Positions 4,473 to 32,400 of a stretch of DNA of 34,757 nucleotides are shown here, piece by piece. How positions within the stretch are numbered: the stretch's first letter is position 1; each line of letters starts with the position of its first letter. The stretch comes from Microcaldota archaeon (lineage in GTDB: Archaea; Iainarchaeota; Iainarchaeia; Iainarchaeales; 1-14-0-10-31-34). A model generated the notes under the pieces. It was not told where the DNA came from. It saw only the letters and a program-made list of their open reading frames with translations, and ran no database searches. The stretch covers positions 1 to 34,757 of the forward strand of contig JAHJUD010000050.1 in assembly GCA_018829335.1 (NCBI GenBank), in the 5' to 3' direction. The position numbers and the translations under genes are program-made.

Positions 4473-6776
4473 TCACTCTTGTAATTCAATGCTGTCCTCG
4501 CTTATTTCAGGCAACTCTTCATCAAACTCTGCTGGTTTTTCTTTTGTTTTTTTGATTTCTTTTTCCAGAGAAGATTGTTTTGGTTTCCTTTTAAAGATAG
4601 AAAACAACTTGTTTAAAAATCTTGTTATAGGTCCTTTCTTTTTGAATTTAATTGTGGTTGGAACTCCGGTTAATTTTTCTGCAATAACATTTATTGCTTC
4701 AACTCCTTTAGAGTTTGGCTTAAATAAAATTGTAGGCATTATTTTTTCTCTCATAAAAGATTTTCTTATGTCATCATCATATGGAACAGAACCATAAATC
4801 GGCAGTTCAAGCATTTTCATTATGTCGTCAGGCATTACTTCTCCTTTCTCGTTTCTGACAAAATTAACTATTATTCCGATTGGTTTTGCACCTAATCTTT
4901 CAGCGACAATTTTTGTTTTTAGTACATCTGCAATTGAAGGAGAAACAGGCATTGTAATTAATAAAACATTATCTGAAGCGCTTAAAGCAGACATTACATT
5001 TGTTTCAATTCCTGCAGGCGCATCCAATAAAATATAATCAAAGTCGTCTTTAACTGAAGCAATGACTCCAGATAATCTTGCTGAATCAACTCTCCTGTAA
5101 GATTCAAAACTTAAGCCTGAAGGAACAAAAGAAATTCCGCCTGGACCATCATAGATTGCATCCTGTAAAGAGCTTTCGCCTAATAATACATCATGTAAAG
5201 TAATTGGAGAAGAATGCATTCCTAACAATAAACTTAAATTTGCCATTGCAATGTCTGCGTCAACTAATAATACTTTTTTTCCTCTTTGAGCTAAAGCAAT
5301 GCCTAAGTTTGCTGTAATAGTAGTGTTTGAAACAATTATTCCTGTTGCATGAGTAAAATGGCCTCCTTGGTCTGATACCTGAAAATCATAAACAAAAGGA
5401 TTGTCATATTCAACTTCATTGACTCTTTCAACTCTTCTGAATAAAATATTTGAATTAATTAAATCTTTAAGCCACTCTAATTTTTCATTTTTAACGCTTA
5501 ATGCCTCAAAAGATTTAATGTATTTTTCAGTTTTTTCTTTGGATAAAGCATAATATTGCCATTCATATTCATAAATCATTTGTTTTGAACAATTCAATGT
5601 TTTTGCAATTTTTGGAGCAGAAATATTTGCTTCTTCTCTTATCTGTTTTAATATTTTTCCTACAGGATATAAATCAATATTCGTGTTCACTGTTTTTTGG
5701 TTGTTAATTTGTTTTAATATTTTTGCCTGTTTTTGTGAATCATTGAATCCAATAAATTCAGCAAACCTTCCTGCATTTCTTCCTGTTAAATGCAGTCTCC
5801 AGTATTCCCCTTTTTCTTTCATTTTGCCATTTTTTGCAATCTTAAAAGTCTGTTTTATCTGAGAAAGTATTCCAAACCGTGTCCTTAAAAGGGAGGCAAC
5901 TTCAAAAACAAGTTTTTTGCTTTTTGAATCAAATTCTATTTGTCTTCTGGAAATGTGAGCTGAACCATCACAATCAAATAATGCTCTTATAAAAGCCGCA
6001 ACAGATTTATTTGATGAATTACACAATTCTTTTGGAACTTCCTTGCCTTCAGCTGTTGAAATTTTTACTCCATACTTTTCATATAGTTCTTTCACTGTGC
6101 CTGTCCTATAAAAAGAAATTCTATGCAGATTTCTTGAAACGTTTTCTTTATAAGAACCAAAAACTTTTTCAAAGCTTTTCCTTATTTTTGGAAGCAAGGA
6201 ATTAGGAGCACAAAAAACATGAAGCTTGAATCCTTCCATATATCCGTCTCCTATAAGATATCCTAATAATTCAGCAGTTTCAACCGGAACTTTTTCTTCA
6301 AGGAATTTAACAGAATTAGTTGAATTCAATAAAACAAGATAATCTTTTTTTTCTTTTATTTCATCTGCCCTGACTTTTAAAAATACTCCATTCCGCATAA
6401 TAATGAATTTGTGTTCAGGAGTTACTGAAACACTTCCAGAAGCACAACTGATATCAATTAATTTTTTTGGGGCAGGTTTTCTCATTAAAGCTAATGGAAT
6501 GTTTATTTCAGAACTTATTTTTTGGGTTTTATCATTGAATTGAACAGTATCAAGAATTAAATCACTTGAAGGAATTAATACTTCAAAAACTTCTTCTTTT
6601 CCTTCAACTGTTTTACAGATCAATTGTTTAACTTCTGCTTTTCTTTTTTCAATCAGTTCATCTATGTAAGAGCCTATCTGGATTACAGAACCATTAGCCA
6701 AGCTGACAAATTCACCATAAGCCAAGCTTTTTCCAACGCCTCCTTTTCCTGAAGCCAAAGCATAAACTGTTCCCAT
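4473..6776 (-). CDS. minD: MinD/ParA-family ATPase interrupted by an intein
   Basis: ASGKGGVGK | intein | TTITANLGIALAQRGKKVLLVDADIAMANLSLLLG; deviant Walker A, DxD, MinD-like C-terminal segments. Confidence 0.93.
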   Translation of the reverse strand: MGTVYALASGKGGVGKSLAYGEFVSLANGSVIQIGSYIDELIEKRKAEVKQLICKTVEGKEEVFEVLIPSSDLILDTVQFNDKTQKISSEINIPLALMRKPAPKKLIDISCASGSVSVTPEHKFIIMRNGVFLKVRADEIKEKKDYLVLLNSTNSVKFLEEKVPVETAELLGYLIGDGYMEGFKLHVFCAPNSLLPKIRKSFEKVFGSYKENVSRNLHRISFYRTGTVKELYEKYGVKISTAEGKEVPKELCNSSNKSVAAFIRALFDCDGSAHISRRQIEFDSKSKKLVFEVASLLRTRFGILSQIKQTFKIAKNGKMKEKGEYWRLHLTGRNAGRFAEFIGFNDSQKQAKILKQINNQKTVNTNIDLYPVGKILKQIREEANISAPKIAKTLNCSKQMIYEYEWQYYALSKEKTEKYIKSFEALSVKNEKLEWLKDLINSNILFRRVERVNEVEYDNPFVYDFQVSDQGGHFTHATGIIVSNTTITANLGIALAQRGKKVLLVDADIAMANLSLLLGMHSSPITLHDVLLGESSLQDAIYDGPGGISFVPSGLSFESYRRVDSARLSGVIASVKDDFDYILLDAPAGIETNVMSALSASDNVLLITMPVSPSIADVLKTKIVAERLGAKPIGIIVNFVRNEKGEVMPDDIMKMLELPIYGSVPYDDDIRKSFMREKIMPTILFKPNSKGVEAINVIAEKLTGVPTTIKFKKKGPITRFLNKLFSIFKRKPKQSSLEKEIKKTKEKPAEFDEELPEISEDSIELQE
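5325..6728 (-). mobile_element. MinD intein (468 aa) with LAGLIDADG endonuclease
   Basis: Begins S after GKGGVGK, ends ..THATGIIVSN|T; block-B-like TPEH; LAGLIDADG-type motifs AELLGYLIGDGY and AAFIRALFDCDGS; HTH-like segment GKILKQIREEANISAPKIAKTLNCSKQMIYEYE. Confidence 0.92.
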
Positions 6777-7829: not shown

Positions 7830-8282
7830 TCACTTTCTTTTTCCCAAAACAATTACATGGTCTGCAGTATTTTTTAATGCTGCAGCAGAAGCTTCTTCAG
7901 CTAAAACAACTATTGTGTCTTTACCGTATCTTTTTGCTTTAACCAATACAGGCAAAAAATCTGAATCTCTTGTAACAAAAGCAATTATGTGAATTGAATT
8001 ATTGAATATTGTTTCTGTTGCATCAACTGCCATAAAAACATCCACATCTCCTACAGTAATAATTGATTCAAAGCCTTGGTTGACTACTGCTTCAACTAAT
8101 TTGTCTGAAGCATACTGATTCAAAAAAACTTTTCCTATTTTGATGTTGCCAAATTTCAGCAAAGATTTTTTTATTTCATCTAAATCCACGTTTAATTCTT
8201 TCCTTAAAATATTCGGGCCGTCAACAAAAACAGCAATGTTTTTTGTTGACTCTTTTTTCTTAAATAAATCACCTAAAGACAT
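7830..8282 (-). CDS. NYN/PIN-like nuclease domain protein (LabA/TIGR00288-like)
   Basis: IAVFVDGPNILRKELNVDLDEIK, AVDATETIFNNSIHIIAFVTRDSDFLPVLVKAKRYGKDTIVV acidic NYN motifs. Confidence 0.88.
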   Translation of the reverse strand: MSLGDLFKKKESTKNIAVFVDGPNILRKELNVDLDEIKKSLLKFGNIKIGKVFLNQYASDKLVEAVVNQGFESIITVGDVDVFMAVDATETIFNNSIHIIAFVTRDSDFLPVLVKAKRYGKDTIVVLAEEASAAALKNTADHVIVLGKRK

Positions 8283-11051: not shown

Positions 11052-11256
11052 TCCAAAAAAAAAATGTTAAAAGAGAGAAAAAAGTATATAATTTAGAAAG
11101 TTAAAGCATTAAAAAGAGGAATGTTGTAAGGGCCTAGCGTATTTATCATGAATATTTAGTGTAAAAAAACAGTGCAAAATCAGTTACAAAGATGCCGCTT
11201 AAAAAACCTAAAAGTAAAACAATATAATAGAAACCAATCAAAAAAACAAAAACGTC

Positions 11257-11281
11257 AATTTACCGGGATTCCCGGTAAATT
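11257..11281. promoter_or_regulatory. 25-bp perfect palindrome, candidate operator for the 11322-12619 operon
   Basis: AATTTACCGGGA-T-TCCCGGTAAATT, followed a few nt later by a TATA-like ATATATTTAAAA. Confidence 0.7.
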
Positions 11282-11321
11282 TGATATATTTAAAAACTAT
11301 TTTATTTATAGTAAATATCAT

Positions 11322-12305
11322 ATGAAAGTATATGTTCCAAATAGCGCTTTTTTAGGGAATATGCAAGGATTCATCAAAAAACTTGAGTTAGAAGATGACT
11401 CTAAATTAGAAGTCAGTTTTAATAAACAATGGATGTCTCTACATCCAATGGCTTTGGCAATGGTGGCCTCTTTAGGATTAAAGATGAACCACGAAGGCAA
11501 ACCAATTCATTGCGAAGAAATTGAAGCAAAATCAAAACCATATTTTGCAAGAATGGGGTTATTAAGTTATTTGAGTAGTGCTCAAGAAATACAAATTAGA
11601 AAGCATGAAGAATCTGGCAGGTTTATACCATTAAGAACTATAAAAAACAATGATGATTTGAAAAAGTTATTAGAAGACATAAATCCAATTTTTCATGGAA
11701 AAGAAGAGCAAGTAGAAACAGTAAATTATGTATTAAGTGAGTTAATAAGAAATGTATTTGAACATTCTCTTTCAAATATAGGCGCTGTTGTTTGTGTTCA
11801 AAATTTTAAAGCAAGTAAAAAGAATGAAAAACCTAATAGAATATCTATAGGCGTAGCCGATACAGGGATAGGAATAAAGAAATCGTTGTCTGAGTCTTAT
11901 CCAACTAATAACGATTTAGAAGCCATAAAATTAGCTTTAACGCCAGGGGTTACTGGCAGAACAAGAATACCTGGAGGAACAGAACAAAATGCTGGCGCTG
12001 GCTTATTTTTTATTAAGTCAATCGCAAAGGTAAATGGAAATTTTTTTGATGTTTATAGTGGCAGTGGATTTTATAAGTTGTTGACTTCAGATAAAAAGAG
12101 ATCCAGTTTAAATGCAGACCCAAACTTTGATAAGCATTCGGAACTTGAAAATCTTCCTCATTGGCAAGGAACAGTGTTGGGAATAGATATAGTTTTAGAA
12201 CAAACTGAACCATTTATTAATTTACTAAAAAACATAAGAGAGTTTTATTTTAAGATAAAAAAAATAAAGAAAAAAAGCTTTTACAAAAGAGCGAGGTTTA
12301 TATAA
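11322..12305 (+). CDS. GHKL (HATPase_c) domain protein
   Basis: ELIRNVFEHS N-box, GVADTGIGI G1-box, TEQNAGAGLFFIKSIAKVNG G2-like box; start at MKVYVPNSAF (ORF track start 11172 lies upstream of the promoter-like TATA). Confidence 0.85.
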   Translation: MKVYVPNSAFLGNMQGFIKKLELEDDSKLEVSFNKQWMSLHPMALAMVASLGLKMNHEGKPIHCEEIEAKSKPYFARMGLLSYLSSAQEIQIRKHEESGRFIPLRTIKNNDDLKKLLEDINPIFHGKEEQVETVNYVLSELIRNVFEHSLSNIGAVVCVQNFKASKKNEKPNRISIGVADTGIGIKKSLSESYPTNNDLEAIKLALTPGVTGRTRIPGGTEQNAGAGLFFIKSIAKVNGNFFDVYSGSGFYKLLTSDKKRSSLNADPNFDKHSELENLPHWQGTVLGIDIVLEQTEPFINLLKNIREFYFKIKKIKKKSFYKRARFI

Positions 12306-12619
12306 TGGAAATTAAAATGTTTGATGAATTCGGTGTTTTCGGCGAAGATAAAGATAAGGCTAAAAATATAAGAGAAAATAAAATTTTACCAGCTTTAAAC
12401 AAAGGAGAAGACATAATTCTAAATTTTGAAGGGGTTAAGTCGGTAACTCAATCTTTCATGCATGCCTTGATTAGTAAGGTCATTAGAGAAAAGGGAACAG
12501 AAGTTTTAGAGAAAATATATTTTAAAGAATGTAATGATGTCGTAAAAGAAATCGTAAGAATTGTAACCGAATATATGCAAGACCCAATTGGATTAGATGA
12601 AAAAAATGGAATACACTAA
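12305..12619 (+). CDS. STAS-like domain protein (DUF4325-type)
   Basis: GEDIILNFEGVKSVTQSFMHALISKVIREKG pattern; TAATG overlap with upstream GHKL gene. Confidence 0.75.
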   Translation: MEIKMFDEFGVFGEDKDKAKNIRENKILPALNKGEDIILNFEGVKSVTQSFMHALISKVIREKGTEVLEKIYFKECNDVVKEIVRIVTEYMQDPIGLDEKNGIH

Positions 12620-12691
12620 AATATACTTCATTTTGTTATTTTATATAATTACCTGATATTTTTTCAATCAAACCATATTTCTGAAAACAGA

Positions 12692-13387
12692 TTAAAGGTT
12701 TCTGATTTCCACTTTAACAAAAAAAGACTCTAATATTTCTTTTAATTCAAAAAGTTTTTCTGGAGGAAAAGGATCTTTGTTTTTGAATTCAGGGTCAACC
12801 ATTGGTAAATCATTGCGGAATTGCTGTAAAACATAAAGTTTACTGCCTTTCAGCCATTCTCCAATTTTTAATGCATCTTCTTTGGAGAAAAAGTCTGGCA
12901 AAACAGTTGTCCTGAACTCGTAATCCAAACCTGAATTTTTAATTAATTCAATGCTTTGCTTTATTTTTTCCAAGTCAACTTTTACTCCGCATAAATCAGA
13001 ATACTTTTCTTGGGAAGTTTTAATGTCCATTGCAATATAATCCACTAATTTTTCTTTAATCAGTTTTTTGAGCATTTCTGGATTGCTTCCGTTTGAGTCA
13101 AGTTTTACAAGAAATCCTTTTTCTTTTATTTTTTTGCAGAATTCAGGCAAATCTTTTTGCAGTGTTGGTTCTCCGCCTGTAATGCATACTCCGTTAAGCC
13201 ATTTTTTTCTTGATTCAAGAAAAGAAAAAATTTCTTTTTCTTCAATTGAATTCTCTGAATCAAAAGAAATTAAGCTTGGATTCTGGCAGAAACCGCATTT
13301 AAAATTGCAGCCAGCAGTAAATAAAGTGCAGGCAATCTTTCCTGGAAAGTCAATTAAAGTGGTTTTCTGCAGTCCTTTTAAAATCAT
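12692..13387 (-). CDS. nrdG: Anaerobic ribonucleotide reductase activating protein, radical SAM (NrdG-like)
   Basis: LQKTTLIDFPGKIACTLFTAGCNFKCGFCQNPSLI CxxxCxxC; GGEPTLQ. Confidence 0.92.
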   Translation of the reverse strand: MILKGLQKTTLIDFPGKIACTLFTAGCNFKCGFCQNPSLISFDSENSIEEKEIFSFLESRKKWLNGVCITGGEPTLQKDLPEFCKKIKEKGFLVKLDSNGSNPEMLKKLIKEKLVDYIAMDIKTSQEKYSDLCGVKVDLEKIKQSIELIKNSGLDYEFRTTVLPDFFSKEDALKIGEWLKGSKLYVLQQFRNDLPMVDPEFKNKDPFPPEKLFELKEILESFFVKVEIRNL

Positions 13388-13428: not shown

Positions 13429-13602
13429 TCAGCAGACTGCCTTAACTTCTTCTTTTTTGAATTCTCTTTTCATTGTTTTTTCTTCATTGTATTCCAGCCT
13501 GTCCTTGAATTCTTCTGTTTTTCCTGCATTCCAGTTTTGAACCGGCCTGAAATAGCCTACAATTCTGGAATAAGTTTCACAATTTGAATCACATTTAGTC
13601 AT
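13429..13602 (-). CDS. Detached glycyl-radical domain of anaerobic ribonucleoside-triphosphate reductase (57 aa; not in supplied ORF track)
   Basis: MTKCDSNCETYSRIVGYFRPVQNWNAGKTEEFKDRLEYNEEKTMKREFKKEEVKAVC*; RIVGY radical-site motif; ATGA overlap with nrdD stop; GAGGAGGT SD 9 nt upstream. Confidence 0.88.
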   Translation of the reverse strand: MTKCDSNCETYSRIVGYFRPVQNWNAGKTEEFKDRLEYNEEKTMKREFKKEEVKAVC

Positions 13603-16600
13603 TTTAAAATTACCTCCTCTTTTTTTTCTTCTTTTTCTTGCAGCACGGGTTTATCCCGTGCACTGTTACTCGCGGACGGAACCGTTGCCTTATTTACACT
13701 TTCTTCTTTTTGGAGCACAGGCTTGTCCTGTGCATTGTTACTGTCGGACGAAACCGGCAAAGGGCAGTTGAAATGTTCTCCTGCAATATAACCATGCACT
13801 GGACAGACACTAAAAGTCGGCGTAATAGAATAATATGGAAGCTTGGTGTTTTCTGCAATTTTTTTTACTAACTGCTTGCATGATTCCCCGTCACTCATTT
13901 TTTCCCCTAAAAAAGTATGAAAAATAGTTCCTCCAGTGTATAAAGGCTGAACTTCATTTTGGTGGATTATTGCTTCAATCGCGTCTTCAGTGAAATTTAC
14001 TGGCAATTGAGTTGAATTTGTAAGATATGGAGTGTCTTTTCCGGCAGTGTAAATTTCAGGATGAAATTTTTTGTCTAACATTGCCAAGCGAAAAGAAGCT
14101 GATTCAGCTGGAGTTGCTTCTAAATTGTATAAGTTTTGGGTTTCTTTCTGGAATTCAAAGCATTTTTCTCTCATAAAAGACAGTGTTTCAACTGCAAACT
14201 GTTTTCCTTGTTCTGAAGAAATATCTTTTCCTAAAAAATTCACACAGGCTTCATTCATTCCAACCAAGCCAATTGTAGAAAAATGGTTGTTGAAGGTTCC
14301 TAAATAAACTTTAGTAAAAGGCATTAAACCATTTTTCAGGTTTTTGTTGATTATTTTTCTTTTTATTTCCAGAGAAGTTTTTGCAAGATTCATATAATAA
14401 GTTAATTTTTCAAAGAATTCTTTTTTTGTTTCTGACTCAAAAGCAAGCCTGTTAACATTAATTGTTATTACTCCAATAGAACCTGTTGCGTCTCCCGGCC
14501 CCCACATTCCTCCAGGCCTGTTAATTAACTGGGAAGTATCCATGTTCAATCTACAACAGTTATGGGTTATTGTTCCAAGCGAATGAACAAACCTGTAGTT
14601 TTCTTCTAATTCAATGTCAAAAAAGCTTGTTTCTTCAGGCAAAACAATTTTTTCAATTTTTGTTATTTCAATCGGATAAATGCTGCTTTCATTTAGTTTT
14701 TTTGTTAGTTCTGTGTGTGCATTATAATACTGTAAAGTCATTAACCCTACTTTCCTGTTATGGTCTAATCCAAGAACTTTATATGTATTGACTCCCCATG
14801 AAGGCACTCTTTCAAATAAGGCAGGGCTTCCAATGCGGTTATCTGACATTTTTTCTTTTCCGCCCTGAATACTGATTACCTGAGAATTTTCTCTTTCCCT
14901 GAAAGTTACTGGTTTTCCTATCATATGATAAAGCATTACAAGCTCTCTTGCTAACATAGAATCATTTATGTGTATTTCTCCACGTTTTTTGTAGCCGTCT
15001 CCAAGGAAAAAGCCATCCAAAAAAGCTTCCATTACTTTTTTTGGAGAATTCCATATTTGAGGCATTATTTTCCCGTATTTTTTAAGACCGTTTTCTGCTA
15101 ATTCCCTTGACAGGAATGCATTATAAAAATACGCGTAAAATGCATTATATCTTGGGTCTTTTTTGGTTTTTGCTTTTACTCCAAGTTTTTTTTCTGCAAG
15201 AAGTATTATTTCTTTTGCATAAGCATTATTTTGGCTTGGAAATGTAAACTGCATTCCTTTCTCTAAACCAAAAGTAGAAATGTTTTTCCTGTTTTCATAC
15301 AAAAAGTTTCCGTCTGCAACAAAAAACCCTAAAAGTTTTGCCATTTCTTCGTCAAGTTCGTGTTCCCCGATTCTTTGCGTTTCAGATGAAAGGCATTTTT
15401 CAGCTGATTTAACACTAAGCAAGAATTCAGATTCAGAAAGAAATAAAGCAGGCTTTTCTGTTATTCCATCAGGAGTTAAAATTGAAACAGGGTGGTTTGG
15501 AGTTACTTTAATTTGCTTGCCGTCTCTTGTTTTAATTAACATCATTTCTTTTCCGAGATTTTTTACGATGTTTTTTATTGGCTTCCATTCAAGTTCAAAA
15601 GTTTTTTCATTCAAAGACAATGCCTTAATTGGCGTATTCAATTTACTCCAGCCCTGATAATCAAATTTCACTGAATGTTTTACTGCAAGTTCACCTATAC
15701 TGGTTTTTTCAATGATTCCATCTTTTTTTATTAGTATTTCTTCTTCTGGATGCAGGCACATTGCCCTAATGCTTTTTGGATCCAAATCAGAGCCAACATA
15801 ATTCTGAAAATACGGAGTGCCGTATTTTGCTGTTACTTCAAACAATAATTTTGAATTCTCTGAATCCCAGTTAAAGTCTTTAGTCAAATTATAGGTTGGA
15901 ATAGGAAAAGTAAAAATTCTTCCGTTAGCGTCTCCTTCCTGCATTACCTCAAGAAAAGCCTTGTTAATCATATCCATTTCTTTTTGCAATTCCCTGTAAG
16001 TGTAATCCATTTCTTTTCCGCCGACAACTGCTTTATCGTTTTGCATGTCTTCTGGAACAGTCCAGTCAAAAGTAAGGTTAGAAAAAGGATATTGTGAATT
16101 GCCGCTCAAGAATACTTTTCCATTTCTTCTTACAACAACAGTATTATTTGTTGTGGTAGGGCACCAGACAATCCCGTCATAATCAACTTCATTAATTGAA
16201 GTTATCTGGGTAAAATCGTGCTTTATTACTCTTACAACATAGATTCCGTTCTTGTTTTTCAAGAGGGTACTTCCCCATCCGCTTTTCACTATCATTTCTT
16301 GGAGGAAATCAGCATCCTCCTTTTTTTTAGTGTAAATTTTATTTTCTGGCACATGGCCGTCTGCTTTAATATAAGTGTCAATGAATTCTCTTGCATGTTC
16401 TGTGGAAATGTTTCTTAAACTTTCTGGGATGACTTTCACATAATTTGGGAAAAATGTTTCATGAATTCTTCTTGATTCAGGCCTGTTCAGCCTAAACCTG
16501 ACGCAATTCATTTTTCCTGTAAAGCCTGACTGTCTTGGCATTTCATCAAAGGGAATTTCAAGTTCATCTAAAGTGTCTCTTATTTCATCACAGTTTTCAG

Positions 16601-17852
16601 GATTCATTTCCTGTGACTGGTAAATTGCAATTCTTTCATTTCTGCAAAGGCTTCCTTCTGAAACAATCCATGCAAGAGACTTAACTAAATTCTTATCAAT
16701 TTCTTCTCCTTTAAATTTTCCTCCTAAAGGAATCAAAGGAATTTTAGTTTTTAGTTTTTGTGCTTCTTCTAAAACATATTTTGATGCAGATTTTCCTTCC
16801 TCAAAATTATGGATTCTCCGCAAAACTTTATGGTTTGGAGTAACTAACTGGTCAGTTATCCTGTTCTTTAAGTTATGCATTTTTCCTTTGAAATGGTCTT
16901 TAGTCATTTTCAGTACAGGTTTGTATTCTATTTCTTCTTTTTCCATGTTAAAAGTTGCTATAACTTCTCCTTCATCCAAATCTTTTCCTAATTTCCACCC
17001 AGCATCTGTCAGGATTTCAGTGTCCTCGCTAAAACAGCCCCATCTGCTTGGAATATTCAAAGAATAAACTAATTCCTGAAGGCATTGTTTGGTTTGCCTG
17101 TAAGTTAAATTATCTGCTCTTACAAAAGGAGACAAAAGAGTATCAACAGAACTAAAAGCTTGTGCTCCGGCAAACTCCATCTGCAGGCATCCAATAAAAT
17201 TAACCATTTGATGAACTACAACATCCAAGTGTTTTGCAGGCTTTGCATCAACTTTATTTGCTACGCCTCCAAAGCCTCTAGTAAGCAAATCTTTCAGCGA
17301 CCAACCGGCACAATATCCAATAAACCCATGGCTTAAATCATGGATGTGAATATAGCCTTGCCTGTATGCTGTGCTTACATCTTTAGGGTAAATTTTTGTT
17401 AAAGCATAACTTGCAATAACTTTTCCTGCAGTGTGAAGTAAAAGCCCTGAAAAAGAGTATGCTTCATTAGAGTTTTCTTTAACACGCCAGTCATCCTGAT
17501 GCAAATATTCATTGATTGTTTCTTCCACGTCAACAAAAGTGTCTTTCATTTCTCGGATTCTTGACTGCTGTTCCCTGTACAAAATGTAGGCTTTGGCTGT
17601 CTTTGCATGACCTTCTTCTACAAGAACTTTTTCTACTATGTCCTGAATTTGTTCAACTGAAGGCACATCAGTTTCAGAATCAAACTTTATTCTTGAAACA
17701 AAAACAACTTTTTCAGCTAATTTTTTTGCAACTTCAATGTCTGAACCGCCAACGCTTTGGGCAGCCTTAAAAACAGCCTGAACAATTTTTTCTTTATCAA
17801 AAGGTACAACAGAACCATTTCTTTTCTTTATTGATTTAAAATATTCTCCCAT
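13599..17852 (-). CDS. nrdD: Anaerobic ribonucleoside-triphosphate reductase catalytic chain (NrdD), two inteins, lacking the C-terminal glycyl-radical domain
   Basis: N-terminal ATP-cone (KRNGSVVPFDKEKIVQAVFKA), HDLSHGFIGYCAGWSL, IPSRWG|intein|SQYPFSNLTFDW, IRAM|intein|CCRLNMD, TPTFSVCPVHGYIAGEHFNCP; start at ATG 17852 with GTGAT SD. Confidence 0.95.
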   Translation of the reverse strand: MGEYFKSIKKRNGSVVPFDKEKIVQAVFKAAQSVGGSDIEVAKKLAEKVVFVSRIKFDSETDVPSVEQIQDIVEKVLVEEGHAKTAKAYILYREQQSRIREMKDTFVDVEETINEYLHQDDWRVKENSNEAYSFSGLLLHTAGKVIASYALTKIYPKDVSTAYRQGYIHIHDLSHGFIGYCAGWSLKDLLTRGFGGVANKVDAKPAKHLDVVVHQMVNFIGCLQMEFAGAQAFSSVDTLLSPFVRADNLTYRQTKQCLQELVYSLNIPSRWGCFSEDTEILTDAGWKLGKDLDEGEVIATFNMEKEEIEYKPVLKMTKDHFKGKMHNLKNRITDQLVTPNHKVLRRIHNFEEGKSASKYVLEEAQKLKTKIPLIPLGGKFKGEEIDKNLVKSLAWIVSEGSLCRNERIAIYQSQEMNPENCDEIRDTLDELEIPFDEMPRQSGFTGKMNCVRFRLNRPESRRIHETFFPNYVKVIPESLRNISTEHAREFIDTYIKADGHVPENKIYTKKKEDADFLQEMIVKSGWGSTLLKNKNGIYVVRVIKHDFTQITSINEVDYDGIVWCPTTTNNTVVVRRNGKVFLSGNSQYPFSNLTFDWTVPEDMQNDKAVVGGKEMDYTYRELQKEMDMINKAFLEVMQEGDANGRIFTFPIPTYNLTKDFNWDSENSKLLFEVTAKYGTPYFQNYVGSDLDPKSIRAMCLHPEEEILIKKDGIIEKTSIGELAVKHSVKFDYQGWSKLNTPIKALSLNEKTFELEWKPIKNIVKNLGKEMMLIKTRDGKQIKVTPNHPVSILTPDGITEKPALFLSESEFLLSVKSAEKCLSSETQRIGEHELDEEMAKLLGFFVADGNFLYENRKNISTFGLEKGMQFTFPSQNNAYAKEIILLAEKKLGVKAKTKKDPRYNAFYAYFYNAFLSRELAENGLKKYGKIMPQIWNSPKKVMEAFLDGFFLGDGYKKRGEIHINDSMLARELVMLYHMIGKPVTFRERENSQVISIQGGKEKMSDNRIGSPALFERVPSWGVNTYKVLGLDHNRKVGLMTLQYYNAHTELTKKLNESSIYPIEITKIEKIVLPEETSFFDIELEENYRFVHSLGTITHNCCRLNMDTSQLINRPGGMWGPGDATGSIGVITINVNRLAFESETKKEFFEKLTYYMNLAKTSLEIKRKIINKNLKNGLMPFTKVYLGTFNNHFSTIGLVGMNEACVNFLGKDISSEQGKQFAVETLSFMREKCFEFQKETQNLYNLEATPAESASFRLAMLDKKFHPEIYTAGKDTPYLTNSTQLPVNFTEDAIEAIIHQNEVQPLYTGGTIFHTFLGEKMSDGESCKQLVKKIAENTKLPYYSITPTFSVCPVHGYIAGEHFNCPLPVSSDSNNAQDKPVLQKEESVNKATVPSASNSARDKPVLQEKEEKKEEVILK
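13638..13756. repeat. Two copies of a 47-nt palindromic repeat (13638-13684 and 13710-13756), in frame within nrdD 3' end
   Basis: Copies match at 38/47 positions by eye; stems GCACGGG-TTTAT-CCCGTGC and GCACAGG-CTTGT-CCTGTGC; start-to-start spacing 72 nt. Confidence 0.85.
14559..15758 (-). mobile_element. NrdD intein 2 (400 aa) with LAGLIDADG endonuclease
   Basis: IRAM|CLHPEEEILI .. GTITHN|CCRLN; VTPNHPVSI; AKLLGFFVADGNF and FLDGFFLGDGYKK. Confidence 0.94.
16098..17036 (-). mobile_element. NrdD intein 1 (313 aa), compact with divergent LAGLIDADG motifs
   Basis: SRWG|CFSEDTEILTDAG .. VVVRRNGKVFLSGN|SQYPFSN; VTPNHKVL; SLAWIVSEGSL and FIDTYIKADGH. Confidence 0.9.
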
Positions 17853-17896
17853 TATATCACTTTCTTTCTTCCACAATGAAAAAGGTCGATTTAGTA

Positions 17897-18846: not shown

Positions 18847-21800
18847 ATGGAATCCGAAAAAACAACAACTATTTTAGAAGCAGAAGAAAATCCTTTTGTT
18901 TCAAAATTTGAACAATTTTTTTCCCAACAATACAAGAAAAAAATTGAAAGACTAGCTTCCCAGTATCCGGAAAAAAAATCTTTGGAAATAGATTTTAAAG
19001 AACTAGAAGAATTTGATTTTGAGTTAGCTGATTCTTTATTAGAAAATCCAGATTATGTAATTGAAGCAGCAGAAATTGCAGCTAAAAGCATTGATGTTCC
19101 TATTCTTGAAAGTGAAAGCTTTAATCCTTTTATTCGAATTTATAATTTACCAAAAGAAAGCCAGCCATTGTTAAGAGATATTAGTTCCCTGCATTTAGGT
19201 AAATTGATTTCAGTTGAAGGTGTAATAAGACAAATAACTGATGTGCTCCCAAGATTAAAATATGCTAAATGGGAATGCAAAAGTTGCGGCAATACATACA
19301 AGTTACATCAATCTGGCACACTTCCTACCCCGCCAAAAATCTGTGAATGCAAACACAGAGATTTTAGATTAATTTTAAATGAAAGTGAATTCATTGACAG
19401 CCAGAAAATTGAAATACAAGAACCATTAGAAAGATTAAGGGGTTCAGAACAGGCAGTAAATTTAGAAATTAATGCAACAAATGATTTAGTGAATAAAGTT
19501 GCAGCAGGAGACAAGACTAGAATTACTGGAATTTTAAGGTTAAGGCCGCCAAAAGACAAAAAACTAGTTTTTACCAGGTATTTAGAAACAATTCATTTAG
19601 AAGAAACAGCAAGAGAATTTGAAGAAGTTGAAATAAGCAAAGAAGAAGAACAACAAATCAAAGAACTTGCAAAAAATCCAAAAATTTATGAAATGCTCAC
19701 TCAAAGTATTTCTCCTGCAATTTATGGACACGAAAATGTAAAAGAAGCAATAGTAATGCAGTTGTTTGGCGGAGTAAAAAAATTACTGCCTGGAAAAGCG
19801 ACTGTAAGAGGAAATGTTCATGTATTACTTGTAGGAGACCCAGGAGTGGCAAAATCACAAATTTTAATGGCAGTAAACAGAATTGCACCAAAATCAATTT
19901 ATGTTGCAGGAAAAACTTCCAGCGGAGTGGGGCTTTGTGTGGCTCCTGATTCAATGATTTTGAATGATAATGGATTTAAAGAAATTGGAAATTTTGTTGA
20001 AGAAAAGTTTGATGAAAAAAAAGCAGTTGCTGAAGCAGAAGGAGTAAATTACAATAAAGTGTCAATGGAAACATTTGCATTAAATAATTCACTTAAAACA
20101 GAGAAAAAAAATCTTTCAAAAATATGGAGAATAAATGCCCCTAAACAAATGACAAGAGTTGAACTTCAAAGCGGAAAGTTTATTGAATTAACACCAAACA
20201 CAAAAATGCTTAGAATAAAAAATGGAAAAATTGAATGGATTAAATCAATGGAAATAAAAGAAGGGGATTTTGTTGCAAGCGCAAGAGAACTGCCTGAAGG
20301 ATTGAATAAGCCATTATACTCAATTGAAGTTTTAAGTAAAGATAAAAATACCAGAATAAAAAATAATGTTTCAGAAACAGTAAGAACAATAACAAATAAA
20401 CTTGCAGAAAAACACGGAAGCATACAGAATGTTGCAAAAGAATACAAATTAAGAAGAGATAATCTTTATTTCTGGCGTTCAAAAAAACTTTATACTGGAA
20501 TGCCTTTAAACTTGTTTTTTAAAATGGGGTTGGATGCAGGATTTGAAAAAGAATTTCTTTCAAAACAAGCAAAAATTGTTTTTAATAGATTTGGAAAAAA
20601 CATAAGGATTCCTGAAAAATTAAATAATAAAAATTTAGCTTATCTCGCAGGATTGGTTTTTGGGGATGGAAGCATTTACTTAACAAAAAACAATCAGGCA
20701 GGAATAAGATTTTATAATTCAGATGAAAAACTTTTGAAAGAATTTGATAAAATAATATTTGAATTATTTGGATTAAAAACTGAAAAATTAACTGAAAAAG
20801 ATAAAGTTCCAGGAAGAAGAATTAATTCAATTGTTATTTGGAACCTGCTAAAAGAATTTGGTTTAAGCAACAAAAAACTTGAAAGCAAATTATCTCATTT
20901 CTGCACAGAACAAAGCAATGAATTGCTGGCAGAAGTTTTACAAGGATTGTATGACACTGATGGTTATGTTTCAAAAGGAAGTTCGCCTCATGTTGGACTA
21001 ACAACCATAAGCAAAAAACTAGCTCAAACTGTTCAATTATCTTTGCTGAAATATGGAATTCAGGCTAAATTAAGGGAAAGAAAACTAAAAGGAAGAATTT
21101 GCATAGGAAAAAATATTACTGTGAGAAGCAATAATAACCAGTTTTATGTGGAGTTAAGAGGAAAAAATAACCTTGAATTATTCATGGAAAGCATAGGTTT
21201 TAAAATTTCAAGAAAAAATAACTCACTAAAAGAAATCATTAAAAAAATATCAAAAAGTAACCCAAATATTGATATTGTTCCAGAAATAGGTTCTTTGCTG
21301 AAAGAAATTAAAGCAAGCAAAGAGTTTAACCCAACACAAAAAAAATTAACAGAAATAATAAAAAACAAAGAAAATCCTCTTCTTAAATCACTTGCAGAAG
21401 CCAATATTGTCTGGGAAAAAGTTCAATCAAAAGAATACTTTAAGCCAGAATACAATTTTGTTTATGATTTTACAGTGGAAAACTCTCATAATTTCATTGC
21501 AAACGGAGTTATTGTCCATAACACGGCTTCTGCAGTCAAAGACGATTTTGGAGAAGGAGGCTGGACACTAAAAGCCGGAGCATTAGTTTTGGCAAGCGGG
21601 GGACTATCCTGCTTGCATCCAGAATCACAAATTATTGCTGACAATAAAGTAAAAAAAATTGCAGAACTCTTTAAAGAAAAAGACTCATTTAATGCACAAA
21701 ACAAGCAAACAAAGGAAACTATTAAAGTATCCGAAGTTTCGCTTGGAGTCCCCTGCTGGAATGAAACAGAAAAAAAAATGGAAAATAGATTAGCAACAAA

Positions 21801-24153
21801 AGTAAGAAGAAAGAAGTACTCTGGAAAAATATTGGAAGTTAAACTTTCTTCCGGAAACAAACTAAAGCTTACCCCAGACCATTTGCTTTTAGACGGAAGT
21901 GACCTGAAATGGAAAAAAGCAGAAGAGTTTTCTAAAGAAGATTTTGTTCTGTCTCCTTTAAAACTCCCTTCAGTTAAAGAGCAAAAACTTATAATTGATT
22001 ACATACCAGAAAACTGGATTGTTTCTCTTTCAAAGAAAGAGAAAGAAGAAGTAAAACAAAAAGTAAAGGAAAAATTTTCCACTTTAGCGGAGTTCAACCA
22101 AAAGTTCGGTTTAGATAGAAATTTCCTTTCCGGACAAAGACAAGTATCCATGAAAAAATTTAGGGAAATAACTGAATTTCTCGGATTCTTTGATTACTGG
22201 AAAACAAGGGAACTTAATTTTTCAAGAAAATTCAAAACAGGGAAATTAGCGGTTTCAGAAATAACTCCTAAGATGAGCTATTTATTCGGTTTTATTTACG
22301 GGGATGGCCACGTAAGAATCTCCAAAAGAAGAAGCTCTTTTCAAATTGTCCAGTCAACTAACCATCCAAAACAAATTGAAAGAATCAGGAAATGCTGGAA
22401 AAGTGTTTTTAACGAAAACACGCACGAATACAAAAGAAGGACTTCTTCAATAATAAAAGGAAAAAAAGTTTCAGGAGAAAGCATAACTTTCACTAAATCA
22501 CATAACACTTTTGTGTTCTTATACAATTATTTTACTGAAAATAAGCTTTCAAGGCTTTTTTCACTTTCAGATGAAAACCTTTCAGCATTTATTGCAGGAT
22601 CACTTGACTCAGACGGCTGTGTTTCAATAAAAAATTACACAAAAAAAGGAAAAAAATATCAGCAGGCACATATTGAATTTCTATTAAATGATGATTTCCA
22701 GGAAAGCCTTAATTTCGCTTTGGCTTTAAGAAGATTTGACTGCTATGGAAAAGTGTCAAGAAAACGAGAAAAAGTACTTAATATAACAGTAAGCGGAAGA
22801 AATGATGTTGCAACATTGCTTAATGCAGTAAAAAAATACTCCTGTAAAGTAAAGAAAATCCCTTTAAGGAAAAACCTTGTTTCAGGGGAAAGTGACAAAA
22901 TACCAAAAAAACTTGTTTCCGAAATCTGCATGAAAATTGCAAAAAATAATACAAGCCAGCTGGTAAAACAAGGGTTATGGAGCACTGTCCATTATTTTAT
23001 TAAAAACAAAATTCAACCTTCAAGAGAACAACTAAAAAAAATAATTGAAGCACAAAACATCGTAATTAATGAAAGTATACTGACTGAAGCAGAAAAATTA
23101 ATTACAAGAGACTATTTTTTGGATAAAATAATTTTAATTAAAGAAAAAGAATTTGATGGTTTTGTCTATGATTTATTTGTTCCAGAAAACCACAATTTTG
23201 TCTCAAACGGAACAATAGTGCATAATTGCATAGATGAATTTGATAAAATGGAAAGAGAAGACAGGAGTGCAATGCATGAAGCAATGGAACAGCAAATGGT
23301 TTCAGTGGCAAAAGCAGGAATTGTAACAAGATTTAAAACTGAAACTTCAATTCTGGCTGCAGCCAATCCAAAGTTTGCAAGATTTGACCCATATGAACCT
23401 TTTATCAAACAAATTGACTTGCCTGCAACTTTAATTTCCAGATTTGATTTATTTTTTATGATAAGAGATGTATTAGATAGAGTAAAAGACGAAGAAATCA
23501 CTTCAAGCATTTTAAAGACACATAAAGCAGGAGAAATGATATCACAAGAAAAAAAAACAGGAAAAAAAGCAGGCAAAGAAATGGAAGAATTAAAAGCCCT
23601 GATCACTCCAATAATTGACACTGAATTACTGAAAAAATATCTTTCTTATGCAAGACAAAAAGTTTCTCCGGTTTTAAGCGATGAAGCAATGAAAGCTTTA
23701 AGCGAATTTTATTTAAGTTTAAGGGAAATGGGAAAAAAAGAAGGAAGCTATGCTGCAACTCACAGACAATTAGAAGGATTAGTTAGATTAAGCGAGGCAA
23801 GTGCAAGAGTAAGGTTAAGCAATATAGTGGAAAAAACTGATGCAGAAAAAGCAATTAAGCTGCTTAAAAACTCTTTACAGGATGTAGTAACTGACCCAGA
23901 AACAGGCAAAATAGATATGGATATAATTAACATCGGGCAAACTCATTCAAAATTAACTGCAATAAGAAATGTACTAAGTATAATCAGACAAAAATCACAA
24001 GAACAAGATTTGGTTCCAATAATTGAAGTAATAGAAGAAGCAAAAGCAATTGGATTAGAAAAAGACAAAGTAAACGAAATCATTTCTGATTTAAAAAGAA
24101 AAGGAGAAATCTACGAAAAAAAACATGGTTTTGTTTCTCCGGTAGACAAATAA
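18847..24153 (+). CDS. mcm: Replicative minichromosome maintenance helicase (MCM), two inteins
   Basis: LLVGDPGVAKSQILMAVNRIAPKSIYVAGKTSSGVGL|intein|TASAVKDDFGEGGWTLKAGALVLASGGLS|intein|CIDEFDKMEREDRSAMHEAMEQQ..; zinc motif CKSCG..CECKH; extein ~700 aa. Confidence 0.97.
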   Translation: MESEKTTTILEAEENPFVSKFEQFFSQQYKKKIERLASQYPEKKSLEIDFKELEEFDFELADSLLENPDYVIEAAEIAAKSIDVPILESESFNPFIRIYNLPKESQPLLRDISSLHLGKLISVEGVIRQITDVLPRLKYAKWECKSCGNTYKLHQSGTLPTPPKICECKHRDFRLILNESEFIDSQKIEIQEPLERLRGSEQAVNLEINATNDLVNKVAAGDKTRITGILRLRPPKDKKLVFTRYLETIHLEETAREFEEVEISKEEEQQIKELAKNPKIYEMLTQSISPAIYGHENVKEAIVMQLFGGVKKLLPGKATVRGNVHVLLVGDPGVAKSQILMAVNRIAPKSIYVAGKTSSGVGLCVAPDSMILNDNGFKEIGNFVEEKFDEKKAVAEAEGVNYNKVSMETFALNNSLKTEKKNLSKIWRINAPKQMTRVELQSGKFIELTPNTKMLRIKNGKIEWIKSMEIKEGDFVASARELPEGLNKPLYSIEVLSKDKNTRIKNNVSETVRTITNKLAEKHGSIQNVAKEYKLRRDNLYFWRSKKLYTGMPLNLFFKMGLDAGFEKEFLSKQAKIVFNRFGKNIRIPEKLNNKNLAYLAGLVFGDGSIYLTKNNQAGIRFYNSDEKLLKEFDKIIFELFGLKTEKLTEKDKVPGRRINSIVIWNLLKEFGLSNKKLESKLSHFCTEQSNELLAEVLQGLYDTDGYVSKGSSPHVGLTTISKKLAQTVQLSLLKYGIQAKLRERKLKGRICIGKNITVRSNNNQFYVELRGKNNLELFMESIGFKISRKNNSLKEIIKKISKSNPNIDIVPEIGSLLKEIKASKEFNPTQKKLTEIIKNKENPLLKSLAEANIVWEKVQSKEYFKPEYNFVYDFTVENSHNFIANGVIVHNTASAVKDDFGEGGWTLKAGALVLASGGLSCLHPESQIIADNKVKKIAELFKEKDSFNAQNKQTKETIKVSEVSLGVPCWNETEKKMENRLATKVRRKKYSGKILEVKLSSGNKLKLTPDHLLLDGSDLKWKKAEEFSKEDFVLSPLKLPSVKEQKLIIDYIPENWIVSLSKKEKEEVKQKVKEKFSTLAEFNQKFGLDRNFLSGQRQVSMKKFREITEFLGFFDYWKTRELNFSRKFKTGKLAVSEITPKMSYLFGFIYGDGHVRISKRRSSFQIVQSTNHPKQIERIRKCWKSVFNENTHEYKRRTSSIIKGKKVSGESITFTKSHNTFVFLYNYFTENKLSRLFSLSDENLSAFIAGSLDSDGCVSIKNYTKKGKKYQQAHIEFLLNDDFQESLNFALALRRFDCYGKVSRKREKVLNITVSGRNDVATLLNAVKKYSCKVKKIPLRKNLVSGESDKIPKKLVSEICMKIAKNNTSQLVKQGLWSTVHYFIKNKIQPSREQLKKIIEAQNIVINESILTEAEKLITRDYFLDKIILIKEKEFDGFVYDLFVPENHNFVSNGTIVHNCIDEFDKMEREDRSAMHEAMEQQMVSVAKAGIVTRFKTETSILAAANPKFARFDPYEPFIKQIDLPATLISRFDLFFMIRDVLDRVKDEEITSSILKTHKAGEMISQEKKTGKKAGKEMEELKALITPIIDTELLKKYLSYARQKVSPVLSDEAMKALSEFYLSLREMGKKEGSYAATHRQLEGLVRLSEASARVRLSNIVEKTDAEKAIKLLKNSLQDVVTDPETGKIDMDIINIGQTHSKLTAIRNVLSIIRQKSQEQDLVPIIEVIEEAKAIGLEKDKVNEIISDLKRKGEIYEKKHGFVSPVDK
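19936..21522 (+). mobile_element. MCM intein 1 (529 aa), LAGLIDADG
   Basis: GVGL|CVAPDSMILNDNG .. FIANGVIVHN|TASAVKD; LAYLAGLVFGDGSI and VLQGLYDTDGYV. Confidence 0.95.
21610..23226 (+). mobile_element. MCM intein 2 (539 aa), LAGLIDADG
   Basis: GGLS|CLHPESQIIADN .. FVSNGTIVHN|CIDEFDK; MSYLFGFIYGDGHV and FIAGSLDSDGCV. Confidence 0.95.
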
Positions 24154-29464: not shown

Positions 29465-32400
29465 ATGGCAGAAACTGAAGCCAAAACAAAAGAAGAAACT
29501 AAAATTCAAGCAGTAAAGCCGACAAAAGAAATTTCAGCTGAAACTCTGGCAAAAGAATTCAAAGAACATTCAGTTGCAGAATTCTTCAAAAAAAACAAGC
29601 AAATGCTTGGATTAAGCGGAAAAATCAGAACACTTACAACAATAATTCACGAATATGTTACGAATAGCGTGACAACTGATACACCAACAGTCATAAGAGA
29701 AAATGGAGAAGTAAAAATTGAAAGAATAGGAAAAATTGTTGATAATTTAATGGAAGAAAACGGTTTTGGGTATTCAGCAAAACAGGATGTAGAATCGTTA
29801 AGGGATTTCAATAAATTTGAAGTTTTGTGTTTCGATAAAAAAACAAACAAATTAAACTTTAAACCAGTGAAATCAATTCACAGACACAAAATGGGTTTAG
29901 GCGAAAAAATCTTCAAAATAAAAACTGTTGGAAACAGAACAGTTGAAGCAACAAAACATCATGGATTATTCAGTTTAAGAGAAGGAAAAGTAATTGAAGT
30001 AAAAGCAGAAGAACTATCTGTCGGAGACTATTTAACAGTGCCAAGGAAAAGCTGGATTGAAGAAACAAAAAAAGAAATAAATTTTTTGGAAGAAACTTTG
30101 AAGCTGAATGATGAAGAGTTAGGAGAATTCAGCGTTTTTGGGATAAAAAGCATTTTATACAAAAATGAGGAACTTAAAAACAAAATAAAATCTCAGTTAA
30201 CAGAAAAACAAAGAAATTACGATTTCTACAGAAATTATATGAAATGTGACAGACTTCCTGTTAGACTATTAAAAATATTGAACGATGAAGAAATAAAACT
30301 TTTTTATGAATACAGGATTGGAGCAAGGCATTGCAAATACAAAATGCCAGCAAAAATGCCTATAACAAAAGAACTAATGCGTTTTTTGGGTTTATATATT
30401 GCTGAAGGAAGCACACGAAAAACCATGACAAGCTCTGTTTTATCTTTTGGAGCACATGAAAAAGAACTAATTGAATATTGTGCGTTCTTAACAGAAAAAA
30501 TTTTTGGTTTAAAACCAATTCAAAGGAAAGCCCACAGAACAGCACTAAATGTTGAAATACCATCAAAAACTGTCGCTTTTATTTTAACGAAAATTTTTAA
30601 ATGTGGTTTTGAAGCAAGAAAAAAAAGAATTCCCAACATTGTTTTTAGTGTTTCAGAAGAATTTGCAAAAGAATTCTTGTTTGCATATTTAGCAGGAGAT
30701 GGCTATCCCTCAACAAAGATTTTTAGGAAACTCTTAAATGGAGATTTTAATTTAAAAGAGAAAATTGTCTTAGCCACAGCCAGCGAAGAACTTTCTATTG
30801 GAATCCAATATCTTTTATCAGGTTCAGGCTATTCATACAGTTCCAGCGAAAAAGAAGCTGAAGAAAGAATTATAGCAGGAAAAAAAGCAAGCTTTGGAAA
30901 AAACTACAGAATAGAATTTTACACTAACCAAAAAAATTCACCGCTGAATTTTCTCCCGCTAGAAATTGGAGGAATAGAAGCAGTAATTGAACCAAAACTT
31001 AAATGGGCAATAAACAACAGAGGGCAACAAACAGTCAGCTACGAAAAAATAGTTTCATTAAAAGTAAATGAAGCAAGCATTTCAGAAGAAACAGTAAATT
31101 TTATTGGAGGGGATTTAGGCTTACTTCAAATAAGCGAAATAGAAGAAAGAACCCCGAAAGAAAACGAATATGTTTACGATTATTCTGTTGAAGAAGACGA
31201 AAACTTTGTTGGAGGTTATGGGGCAATATGCCTGCATAATTCTCTGGATGCATGTGAGTCAGCAAATATTCTGCCGGAAATAGAAATCAAAATACAGGAA
31301 TTAGGAACAGAATACTATGAAATTACAATTAAAGACAACGGCCCTGGATTAACAAAAGACACAGTTGGAAAAGCTTTAGGGCAACTGCTTGCAGGAACAA
31401 AATTTCATAGAATGGTTCAGTCAAGAGGGCAGCAGGGAATTGGAGCAGCAGGAGCAACAATGTATGCCCAGACAACAACCGGAAAACCAGTTAAAGTTAT
31501 TTCTGGAACAGGAAAAGGAAAAGCTTTTTCTTTAGAGTTAACAATTGACCCGAAAAAAAATGCACCAAAAATAGAAAACCTCAAAGAAATAGACAAGCCA
31601 TTTAAAGGCCTGGCAATTCAGGCAAAAGTAAAAGATGTTTTATTCAGGATTTCAGAACAAGGCCCATTAGAATATGTCAGGCGAACTGCAATAGCTAATC
31701 CTCATTTACAAATAAGCTTTATTGACCCAACAGGACAAAAAACACTCTTTAAAAGAAGCTCAAACAAAATTCCTGATGCGCCAAAAGAAATAAAACCGCA
31801 TCCTAAAGGAATTACAGTAGATGAATTAGTTACAATGGCAAAATATTCTGATGCAAGAAAAGTCAGTTCTTTTCTTAAGAATTCTTTTGACAGAATGGGA
31901 GACAAAGCAATAGAAGAAATAACAAAACAGGTTTCATTTGACATAAATTCTGACCCAAAAAAAATGGAATGGAATGCCGCAGAAGAAATCATTAAAGCAA
32001 TCAAAACAATAAATTTTATTGCGCCTACAACAGAAGGATTAAGCCCTATAGGAGAAGAACAAATTGAAACTTCATTGAAAAGCATTGTTCAGCCTGAATT
32101 CCTTAAAGTAATTACAAGAAAAGCACAAGTTTACAGCGGAGGATTTCCGTTTCAGATTGAAGTAGCAGTAGCTTTCGGCGGAAACGCAGGAAGAAGTTCA
32201 GGCAATGGAAACGGAGAAGAAGAAAACCTTAAAAGAATGGAAGTAATGCGTTTTGCAAACAAAGCCCCTTTATTGTTTGACGGAGGAGGCTGTGCAATAA
32301 CAAAAGCCGTACAGACAATTGACTGGAAAAGATATGGAATACAAAACATTGATGAAGCTCCTTTAACTGTTTTTATTAACATGATTTCAGTTCATATTCC

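What the first reader, a model, noticed from the sequence alone, without database searches (positions are those of the whole stretch)
11322..12619. GHKL ATPase + STAS-like (DUF4325-type) pair: a partner-switch-like module in an archaeon
Seen: HATPase N-, G1- and G2-like boxes in the first gene; STAS-like pattern with VTQSFMHALI in the second; TAATG translational overlap; own promoter. Knowledge: GHKL anti-sigma kinases with STAS antagonists form bacterial partner switches (SpoIIAB/SpoIIAA type), but archaea lack sigma factors. Inference: the pair would need another target, for instance a stress or defence effector. It looks accessory among housekeeping genes.
Basis: partly seen in the sequence, partly recalled or inferred. 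Interest (0 to 1): 0.68.

Follow-up and report, generated by a model that had tools for sequence, protein, structure and literature searches.

The report
Archaeal kinase–STAS switch pair
A two-gene signalling cassette in a small archaeon belongs to the protein families that bacteria use to sense DNA damage and switch on immune or toxin genes, but here it has neither toxin nor DNA-binding domain, and a conserved palindrome in front of it looks like its own control site.

Summary
Window 11322-12305 encodes a STAS-like plus GHKL kinase. 12305-12619 encodes a DUF4325 (STAS) protein, joined to it by a TAATG overlap. The same overlapping pair recurs in four other archaeal genomes (47-58% identity to the window proteins) under purifying selection. 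It is accessory: DUF4325 is in 8 of 87 genomes of the phylum, and a congener has only 94 bp between the same two flanking genes.

The nearest described relatives are VapK+VapS and CapK+CapS (EMBO J 2026). There, an ssDNA-activated kinase phosphorylates a STAS partner and so releases a VapC toxin or a repressor. The window kinase aligns with VapK over its full length (hhalign E 2.5e-12), and VapS is itself a DUF4325 protein. Unlike those systems, the archaeal pair has no adjacent toxin, no wHTH and almost no VapS-like tail.

New here is a 21-bp palindrome just upstream of the TATA box, kept in front of all five close pairs and otherwise nearly absent from the phylum. The two truncated STAS copies found both begin flush with it.

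My reading: an autoregulated, stress-sensing partner switch acting on an unlinked target. Kinase activity, signal, target and palindrome binder are not shown. New variant of a known kind.

The parts
11257..11281 (.). Palindrome AATTTACCGGGATTCCCGGTAAATT (core TTTACCGGGATTCCCGGTAAA 11259-11279), putative operator
   Evidence: Perfect dyad with 12-bp arms around one base. Conserved at centre -49 to -53 before the start codon of all five close pairs. Only copy in its genome at up to 3 mismatches. Core found in 4 of 87 genomes of the phylum, always beside this STAS gene, reversed-pattern control 0. Function as operator is inferred.
11285..11296 (+). TATA-like element (TATATTTAAAAA), probable archaeal promoter of the operon
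   Evidence: TTTATAAA/TTTAAAAA kept at about the same distance after the palindrome in window, L002 and L003, with weaker versions in L004 and L005. Promoter function is inferred.
11322..12305 (+). Kinase: N-terminal STAS-like domain (about 1-83) + GHKL ATPase/kinase (about 100-291) + basic C-terminal helix
   Evidence: HATPase Pfam matches; VapK profile hhalign prob 97.7, E 2.5e-12 over 257 columns; SpoIIAB is the best PDB sequence hit, E 0.029; AF2/Foldseek GHKL, low confidence; catalytic E140 and N144 invariant.
12305..12619 (+). STAS substrate/antagonist protein of family DUF4325, motif T48-Q-S50-F
   Evidence: PF14213 E 4.3e-13; AF2 pLDDT 88.7, Foldseek hits mostly STAS folds, individually weak; VapS is also PF14213; invariant S50 and S/T48 in the eight archaeal homologues.
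11131..12690 (.). Extent of the accessory insertion relative to congener G003 (boundaries approximate)
   Evidence: MetRS and the radical-SAM gene are 94 bp apart in G003 and 1641 bp apart in the window; nucleotide similarity stops at about 11115 and resumes at about 12692-12705.

Best explanation
The locus is an accessory, patchily distributed partner-switch cassette of the CapKS/VapKSC type in its smallest form: a GHKL serine/threonine kinase with a sensing STAS domain, and a single-domain STAS (DUF4325) substrate. By homology, the kinase is held idle until single-stranded DNA or a similar stress ligand binds between its STAS and GHKL domains. It then phosphorylates the STAS protein at the start of helix 2 (T48 or S50), which makes the STAS protein let go of, or take up, a partner protein encoded elsewhere. 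The operon controls its own dose through the palindrome beside its TATA box. Shown here: the two genes, their families, conserved catalytic and substrate motifs, purifying selection, accessory status, the conserved palindrome, and the absence of a linked toxin or HTH. Inferred: kinase activity, ssDNA as signal, phosphosite, unlinked target, and autoregulation.
For: Full-length profile match to VapK of two vapKSC operons recovered here. VapS is DUF4325, as are the VapS proteins of L086 and L087, each followed by a PIN gene. Profile of the archaeal STAS proteins finds Escherichia VapS in the PDB, E 0.038; kinase profile finds SpoIIAB, E 0.029. E140/N144/H148 invariant. Same gene order and overlap as the VapK/VapS pair of L086. 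dN far below near-saturated dS. Mechanism of the bacterial relatives from PMC13373217. Palindrome conserved in place in five of five pairs, with paired changes in L005, and almost confined to this locus. Empty site in G003.
Against: No biochemical data. The residue that aligns without gaps with the VapS phosphosite S48 is Q49 (or R), while T48 and S50 flank it. The ssDNA-binding aromatic (CapK W68/VapK F54) could only be compared indirectly, through the VapK proteins of L086 and L087 (W37 aligns with F46). No wHTH, and no adjacent PIN toxin in eight of eight archaeal loci examined. Neither protein has a recognisable DNA-binding domain that would bind the palindrome. The kinase model has low confidence (mean pLDDT 63.6).
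Confidence: 0.6

Rival explanations
1. It is a toxin-antitoxin system of the VapKSC kind whose VapC-like (PIN/NYN/HEPN) toxin is encoded elsewhere in the genome; the STAS protein is the antitoxin.
For: Both shared components are of the VapK and VapS families. L003 has a PIN-like ORF (PF13638 E 9e-4) about 1.4 kb downstream, and the window has a NYN nuclease gene 3 kb away on the other strand.
Against: No PIN gene directly downstream in any archaeal pair. The close STAS proteins end at 94-104 aa, lacking most of the C-terminal segment (residues 94-116) that VapS needs to inhibit VapC. The NYN and PIN genes are not shared neighbours between loci.
Confidence: 0.2
2. The pair is an anti-transcription-factor switch: the STAS or kinase protein sequesters an unlinked archaeal transcription factor that binds the palindrome, as anti-sigma modules do with sigma. 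(This is a special case of the best explanation, with a named kind of target.)
For: A palindrome abutting the TATA/BRE is conserved while synonymous sites are near saturation. It is single-copy in the genome, so the regulator would act on this operon only. The bacterial archetypes control transcription.
Against: No linked transcription factor. A regulator with only one site in the genome is most simply encoded by the operon itself, yet no HTH is seen.
Confidence: 0.3
3. The GHKL protein is not a kinase but a DNA- or chromatin-acting ATPase (MORC/HSP90 style), and the STAS protein is a scaffold.
For: Foldseek also ranks GRP94 and MORC2 among the hits.
Against: Constant pairing with a STAS protein, VapK and SpoIIAB as best relatives, and the N-box of anti-sigma kinases.
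Confidence: 0.07
4. The palindrome is a recombination or deletion site rather than an operator, and the cassette is a small mobile unit.
For: Both truncated STAS copies (G041, G042) begin 0-6 bp after the palindrome with kinase and STAS N-half gone; loci sit in different contexts.
Against: The insertion in the window begins about 130 bp upstream of the palindrome and no terminal or target repeats are seen by eye. The position next to TATA is constant in intact loci.
Confidence: 0.12

Closest known systems
VapK+VapS of VapKSC (PMC13373217)
   Same: STAS+GHKL kinase without HTH, DUF4325 STAS protein, same gene order with overlapping genes; full-length profile match of the kinases.
   Different: No VapC gene next to the pair; STAS protein lacks most of the VapS C-terminal tail; residue at the S48 column is Q or R with T48 and S50 beside it; archaeal host; palindrome beside TATA.
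CapK+CapS (PMC13373217)
   Same: Kinase with STAS and GHKL domains plus STAS partner; palindromic control sites near the operon.
   Different: Kinase lacks the N-terminal HTH, the STAS protein lacks the wHTH, no immune operon downstream, palindrome is TTTACCGGGATTCCCGGTAAA rather than TTAA half-sites.
SpoIIAB/SpoIIAA and RsbW/RsbV anti-sigma partner switches
   Same: GHKL serine kinase with STAS substrate; SpoIIAB is the top PDB sequence hit of the kinase profile.
   Different: No sigma factor in archaea; the kinase has an extra N-terminal STAS domain; second gene is DUF4325 rather than classical STAS.
DISARM helicase model DrmA PDLC02567 (PADLOC)
   Same: N-terminal positions about 5-280 and 310-399 match the kinase and the DUF4325 protein in the same order.
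   Different: The model continues for about 1350 further positions, of which nothing is in the window. The fusion itself was not inspected.

Membership tests
VapKSC | VapK: N-terminal STAS + GHKL kinase, no HTH | tested here: met
   hhalign prob 97.7, E 2.5e-12, columns 2-290 against two VapK; AF2 secondary structure of residues 1-83.
VapKSC | VapS: DUF4325/STAS protein | tested here: met
   PF14213 above cut-off for the window protein, for Escherichia VapS and for the VapS of L086 and L087.
VapKSC | VapS C-terminal tail that blocks VapC | tested here: not met
   Close STAS proteins end at 94-104 aa; VapS needs residues 94-116.
VapKSC | Adjacent VapC (PIN) gene | tested here: not met
   Absent directly downstream of eight archaeal loci; only a weak, more distant PIN ORF in L003.
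VapKSC / CapKS | Phosphorylatable Ser/Thr at the start of helix 2 of the substrate STAS | tested here: inconclusive
   S50 invariant and S/T at 48 in eight archaeal proteins, helix predicted from 49, but the ungapped S48 column is Q or R.
VapKSC / CapKS | ssDNA-stacking aromatic in the kinase STAS domain (CapK W68, VapK F54) | tested here: inconclusive
   W37 is invariant in the five close kinases and aligns with F46 of the L086 VapK; the published sequences themselves were not available.
CapKS | CapS winged HTH | tested here: not met
   STAS protein is one domain of 94-104 aa; no HTH in Pfam or in the model.
CapKS | CapK N-terminal HTH | tested here: not met
   STAS-like domain begins at residue 1-2.
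CapKS | Immune operon next to the pair | tested here: not met
   Neighbours are MetRS, radical-SAM activase, NrdD in the window and unrelated genes in other loci.
SpoIIAB/SpoIIAA anti-sigma switch | Kinase binds a sigma factor | not testable with these tools
   General knowledge: archaeal RNA polymerase uses TBP/TFB, so no sigma target is expected.
GHKL kinase | N-box Glu and Asn, G1 and G2 boxes | tested here: met
   E140, N144, H148, D180, G182 and others invariant among the archaeal kinases, with the N-box kept in 16 relatives.

The most novel reading that the evidence does not exclude
In these archaea a minimal kinase+STAS pair is a complete, self-contained stress sensor whose own products (not an HTH protein) occupy the palindrome beside the TATA box. 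This would be DNA recognition by a STAS/GHKL complex, coupled to ssDNA sensing in a domain of life without sigma factors.
Probability: 0.12. Interest if true: 0.8.

Novelty: new variant of a known kind. Interest (0 to 1): 0.52.

Why it matters
The paper that described CapKS and VapKSC treats bacteria; the one passage I could see that names archaea is a reference title. The present loci show that the kinase+STAS sensor also circulates among small archaea, stripped of both known outputs. That makes a direct question testable: what does a partner switch control where there is no sigma factor, no toxin and no DNA-binding domain beside it? The conserved palindrome gives a concrete handle, since whatever binds it is a component of the circuit.

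Tried and rejected
Viral contigs: no close relatives of either protein. Exact 19-bp palindromes found in six viral contigs lie in unrelated sequence with no kinase or STAS gene. NCBIfam gives nothing useful. Single-sequence PDB searches give only chance hits. Plasmid search with the STAS protein: no match. Linked toxin or HTH gene: looked for downstream of eight loci and not found. Palindrome as a multi-copy repeat or regulon site: rejected, single copy in the genome. Palindrome as the end of the inserted segment: rejected, the insertion starts about 130 bp further upstream. Bacterial pairs (Alicyclobacillus plasmid, Marinitoga phage) do not carry the palindrome.

Full report
**Check of the observation.** The kinase ORF runs from ATG 11322 to TAA 12305 and the second gene from ATG 12305 to 12619, overlapping as TAATG. 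The first protein has sub-threshold HATPase matches (E 4e-4). The second matches DUF4325 well above its curated cut-off, E 4.3e-13. The surrounding genes are archaeal housekeeping genes: L15e, MetRS, radical-SAM activase, NrdD, MCM, presenilin-like peptidase, Topo VI A and B.

**Recurrence.** The same two genes, overlapping or abutting within 2 bp, are found in L002, L003, L004 (G040) and L005 (G021), with the kinase 321-322 aa and the STAS protein 94-96 aa. Identity to the window proteins is 47-50% for the kinase and 53-58% for the STAS protein. A second subtype with a kinase of about 269 aa occurs in G068 and G073, and in G048, where the kinase and the STAS gene lie on different contigs. DUF4325 is present in 8 of 87 genomes of the phylum. 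Synonymous sites are near saturation while dN is 0.21-0.45 for the kinase and 0.28-0.38 for the STAS protein. The genes are therefore under selection, not decaying.

**Accessory insertion.** In congener G003 MetRS and the radical-SAM gene are 94 bp apart. In the window they are 1641 bp apart, the extra segment being the pair with its promoter. In congener G004 the same gap holds a different 193-aa gene. Loss in two congeners is possible, but insertion is simpler. The other pairs lie in unrelated contexts.

**What the proteins are.** The kinase has a STAS-like N-terminal domain followed by a GHKL domain and a basic C-terminal helix. E140, N144 and H148 of the N-box are invariant in 16 relatives from archaea, plasmids and phages. 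A model of the STAS protein has pLDDT 88.7, and Foldseek returns mostly STAS folds, each with a weak E-value. The kinase model is poor (63.6); its best matches are GHKL proteins, including the UsfX-RsfB anti-sigma complex. The kinase profile finds SpoIIAB (E 0.029) and the STAS profile finds Escherichia VapS (E 0.038) in the PDB. These are weak one by one, but point the same way.

**The closest described systems.** A 2026 paper (PMC13373217) shows that CapK (HTH-STAS-GHKL) is activated by ssDNA and phosphorylates CapS (STAS-wHTH), which then leaves DNA. It also describes VapKSC, where VapK (STAS-GHKL) is proposed to phosphorylate VapS and so free the VapC toxin. I found that VapS is a DUF4325 protein. 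I recovered two vapKSC operons, L086 and L087, each with a PIN gene. The archaeal kinases align with their VapK over 257 columns, prob 97.7, E 2.5e-12. The STAS proteins align more weakly over 52 columns, E 2.3e-4, prob 44. The pair is therefore of the VapK/VapS family. It is not a VapKSC system as defined: no archaeal pair has a PIN gene directly downstream, and the close STAS proteins lack most of the tail VapS needs against VapC. Nor is it CapKS: both HTH domains and the immune operon are missing.

**Phosphosite and sensor residue.** S50 is invariant and position 48 is S or T in eight archaeal proteins. The ungapped alignment puts VapS S48 at the residue between them, Q49 in the close group. 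VapS numbering here was inferred from the length of the PDB chain. Which residue is phosphorylated is open. W37 of the kinase, invariant in the close group, aligns with F46 of the L086 VapK. It is a fair candidate for the ssDNA-stacking aromatic (CapK W68, VapK F54), but the published sequences could not be compared directly.

**The palindrome.** TTTACCGGGATTCCCGGTAAA (11259-11279) lies just upstream of a TATA-like box. It is the only copy in its genome at up to three mismatches. All five close pairs have a version of it, centred 49-53 bp before the start codon. In L005 the outer arms changed on both sides and still pair. Across 87 genomes the 17-bp core (up to one mismatch) occurs in four, always beside this STAS gene, with none for the reversed control. 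This is what an operator under selection looks like. Its position next to TATA/BRE fits either repression or activation. No DNA-binding domain is seen in either protein, so the binder is unknown.

**An unexplained detail.** In G041 and G042 only the C-terminal part of the STAS gene remains, from codon 52 and codon 40, and in both cases it starts 0-6 bp after the palindrome. A profile search that did not use the palindrome found the same two truncated copies. Two deletions, or one deletion later extended, end at the same edge. Microhomology of a few bases is possible. Whether the palindrome drives the deletions is open.

**Defence link.** No known defence genes surround the archaeal pairs. The link is by homology only: VapKSC protects against a phage, CapKS controls immune operons, and the PADLOC DrmA model PDLC02567 matches the kinases at its positions 5-280 and the DUF4325 proteins at 310-399, which implies that the module is fused to DISARM helicases in some genomes. 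I did not inspect such a fusion. A fused kinase-DUF4325 protein was seen in a Nostoc plasmid, and a stand-alone pair in a Marinitoga phage.

**Verdict.** This is a real, conserved, accessory partner-switch pair, a new variant of the CapKS/VapKSC kind in archaea, with its output unknown and a conserved palindrome as the best experimental handle.

Noticed in passing
L017 7680-7868 (G042) and L016 4729-4885 minus strand (G041): Truncated STAS genes (codons 40-95 and 52-95) joined directly to the palindrome, with kinase and STAS N-half missing; both deletions share the palindrome edge as their left end.
   Followed up: partly
window 4473-6776, 13599-17876, 18847-24153, 29465-32800: Five intein splicing domains with LAGLIDADG-type endonuclease matches in one 35-kb window: ParA/Mrp-like ATPase, NrdD, MCM (two) and Topo VI B.
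   Followed up: no
L084 2173-2754 (G004): In a congener the same MetRS/radical-SAM gap holds a different 193-aa gene, so this gap may be a place where accessory genes come and go.
   Followed up: no
L003 5388-7354: Downstream of the pair in L003: a 160-aa ORF with an RNMIAH motif (HEPN-like by eye, no Pfam hit) and a weak PIN-domain ORF of 266 aa.
   Followed up: partly
L047-L052 (IMG/VR contigs): The exact 19-bp palindrome TTACCGGGAWTCCCGGTAA occurs in six viral contigs (two with the same surrounding sequence), once apparently right after a tRNA-like sequence, with no kinase or STAS gene nearby.
   Followed up: partly
L025 79-1748 (Alicyclobacillus plasmid pAACI02): A bacterial kinase+DUF4325 pair preceded by a small sigma-like HTH gene, a possible direct partner.
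   Followed up: no
window 7830-8282: NYN-domain (PIN-like) nuclease gene 3 kb from the pair on the opposite strand; not a shared neighbour elsewhere.
   Followed up: no
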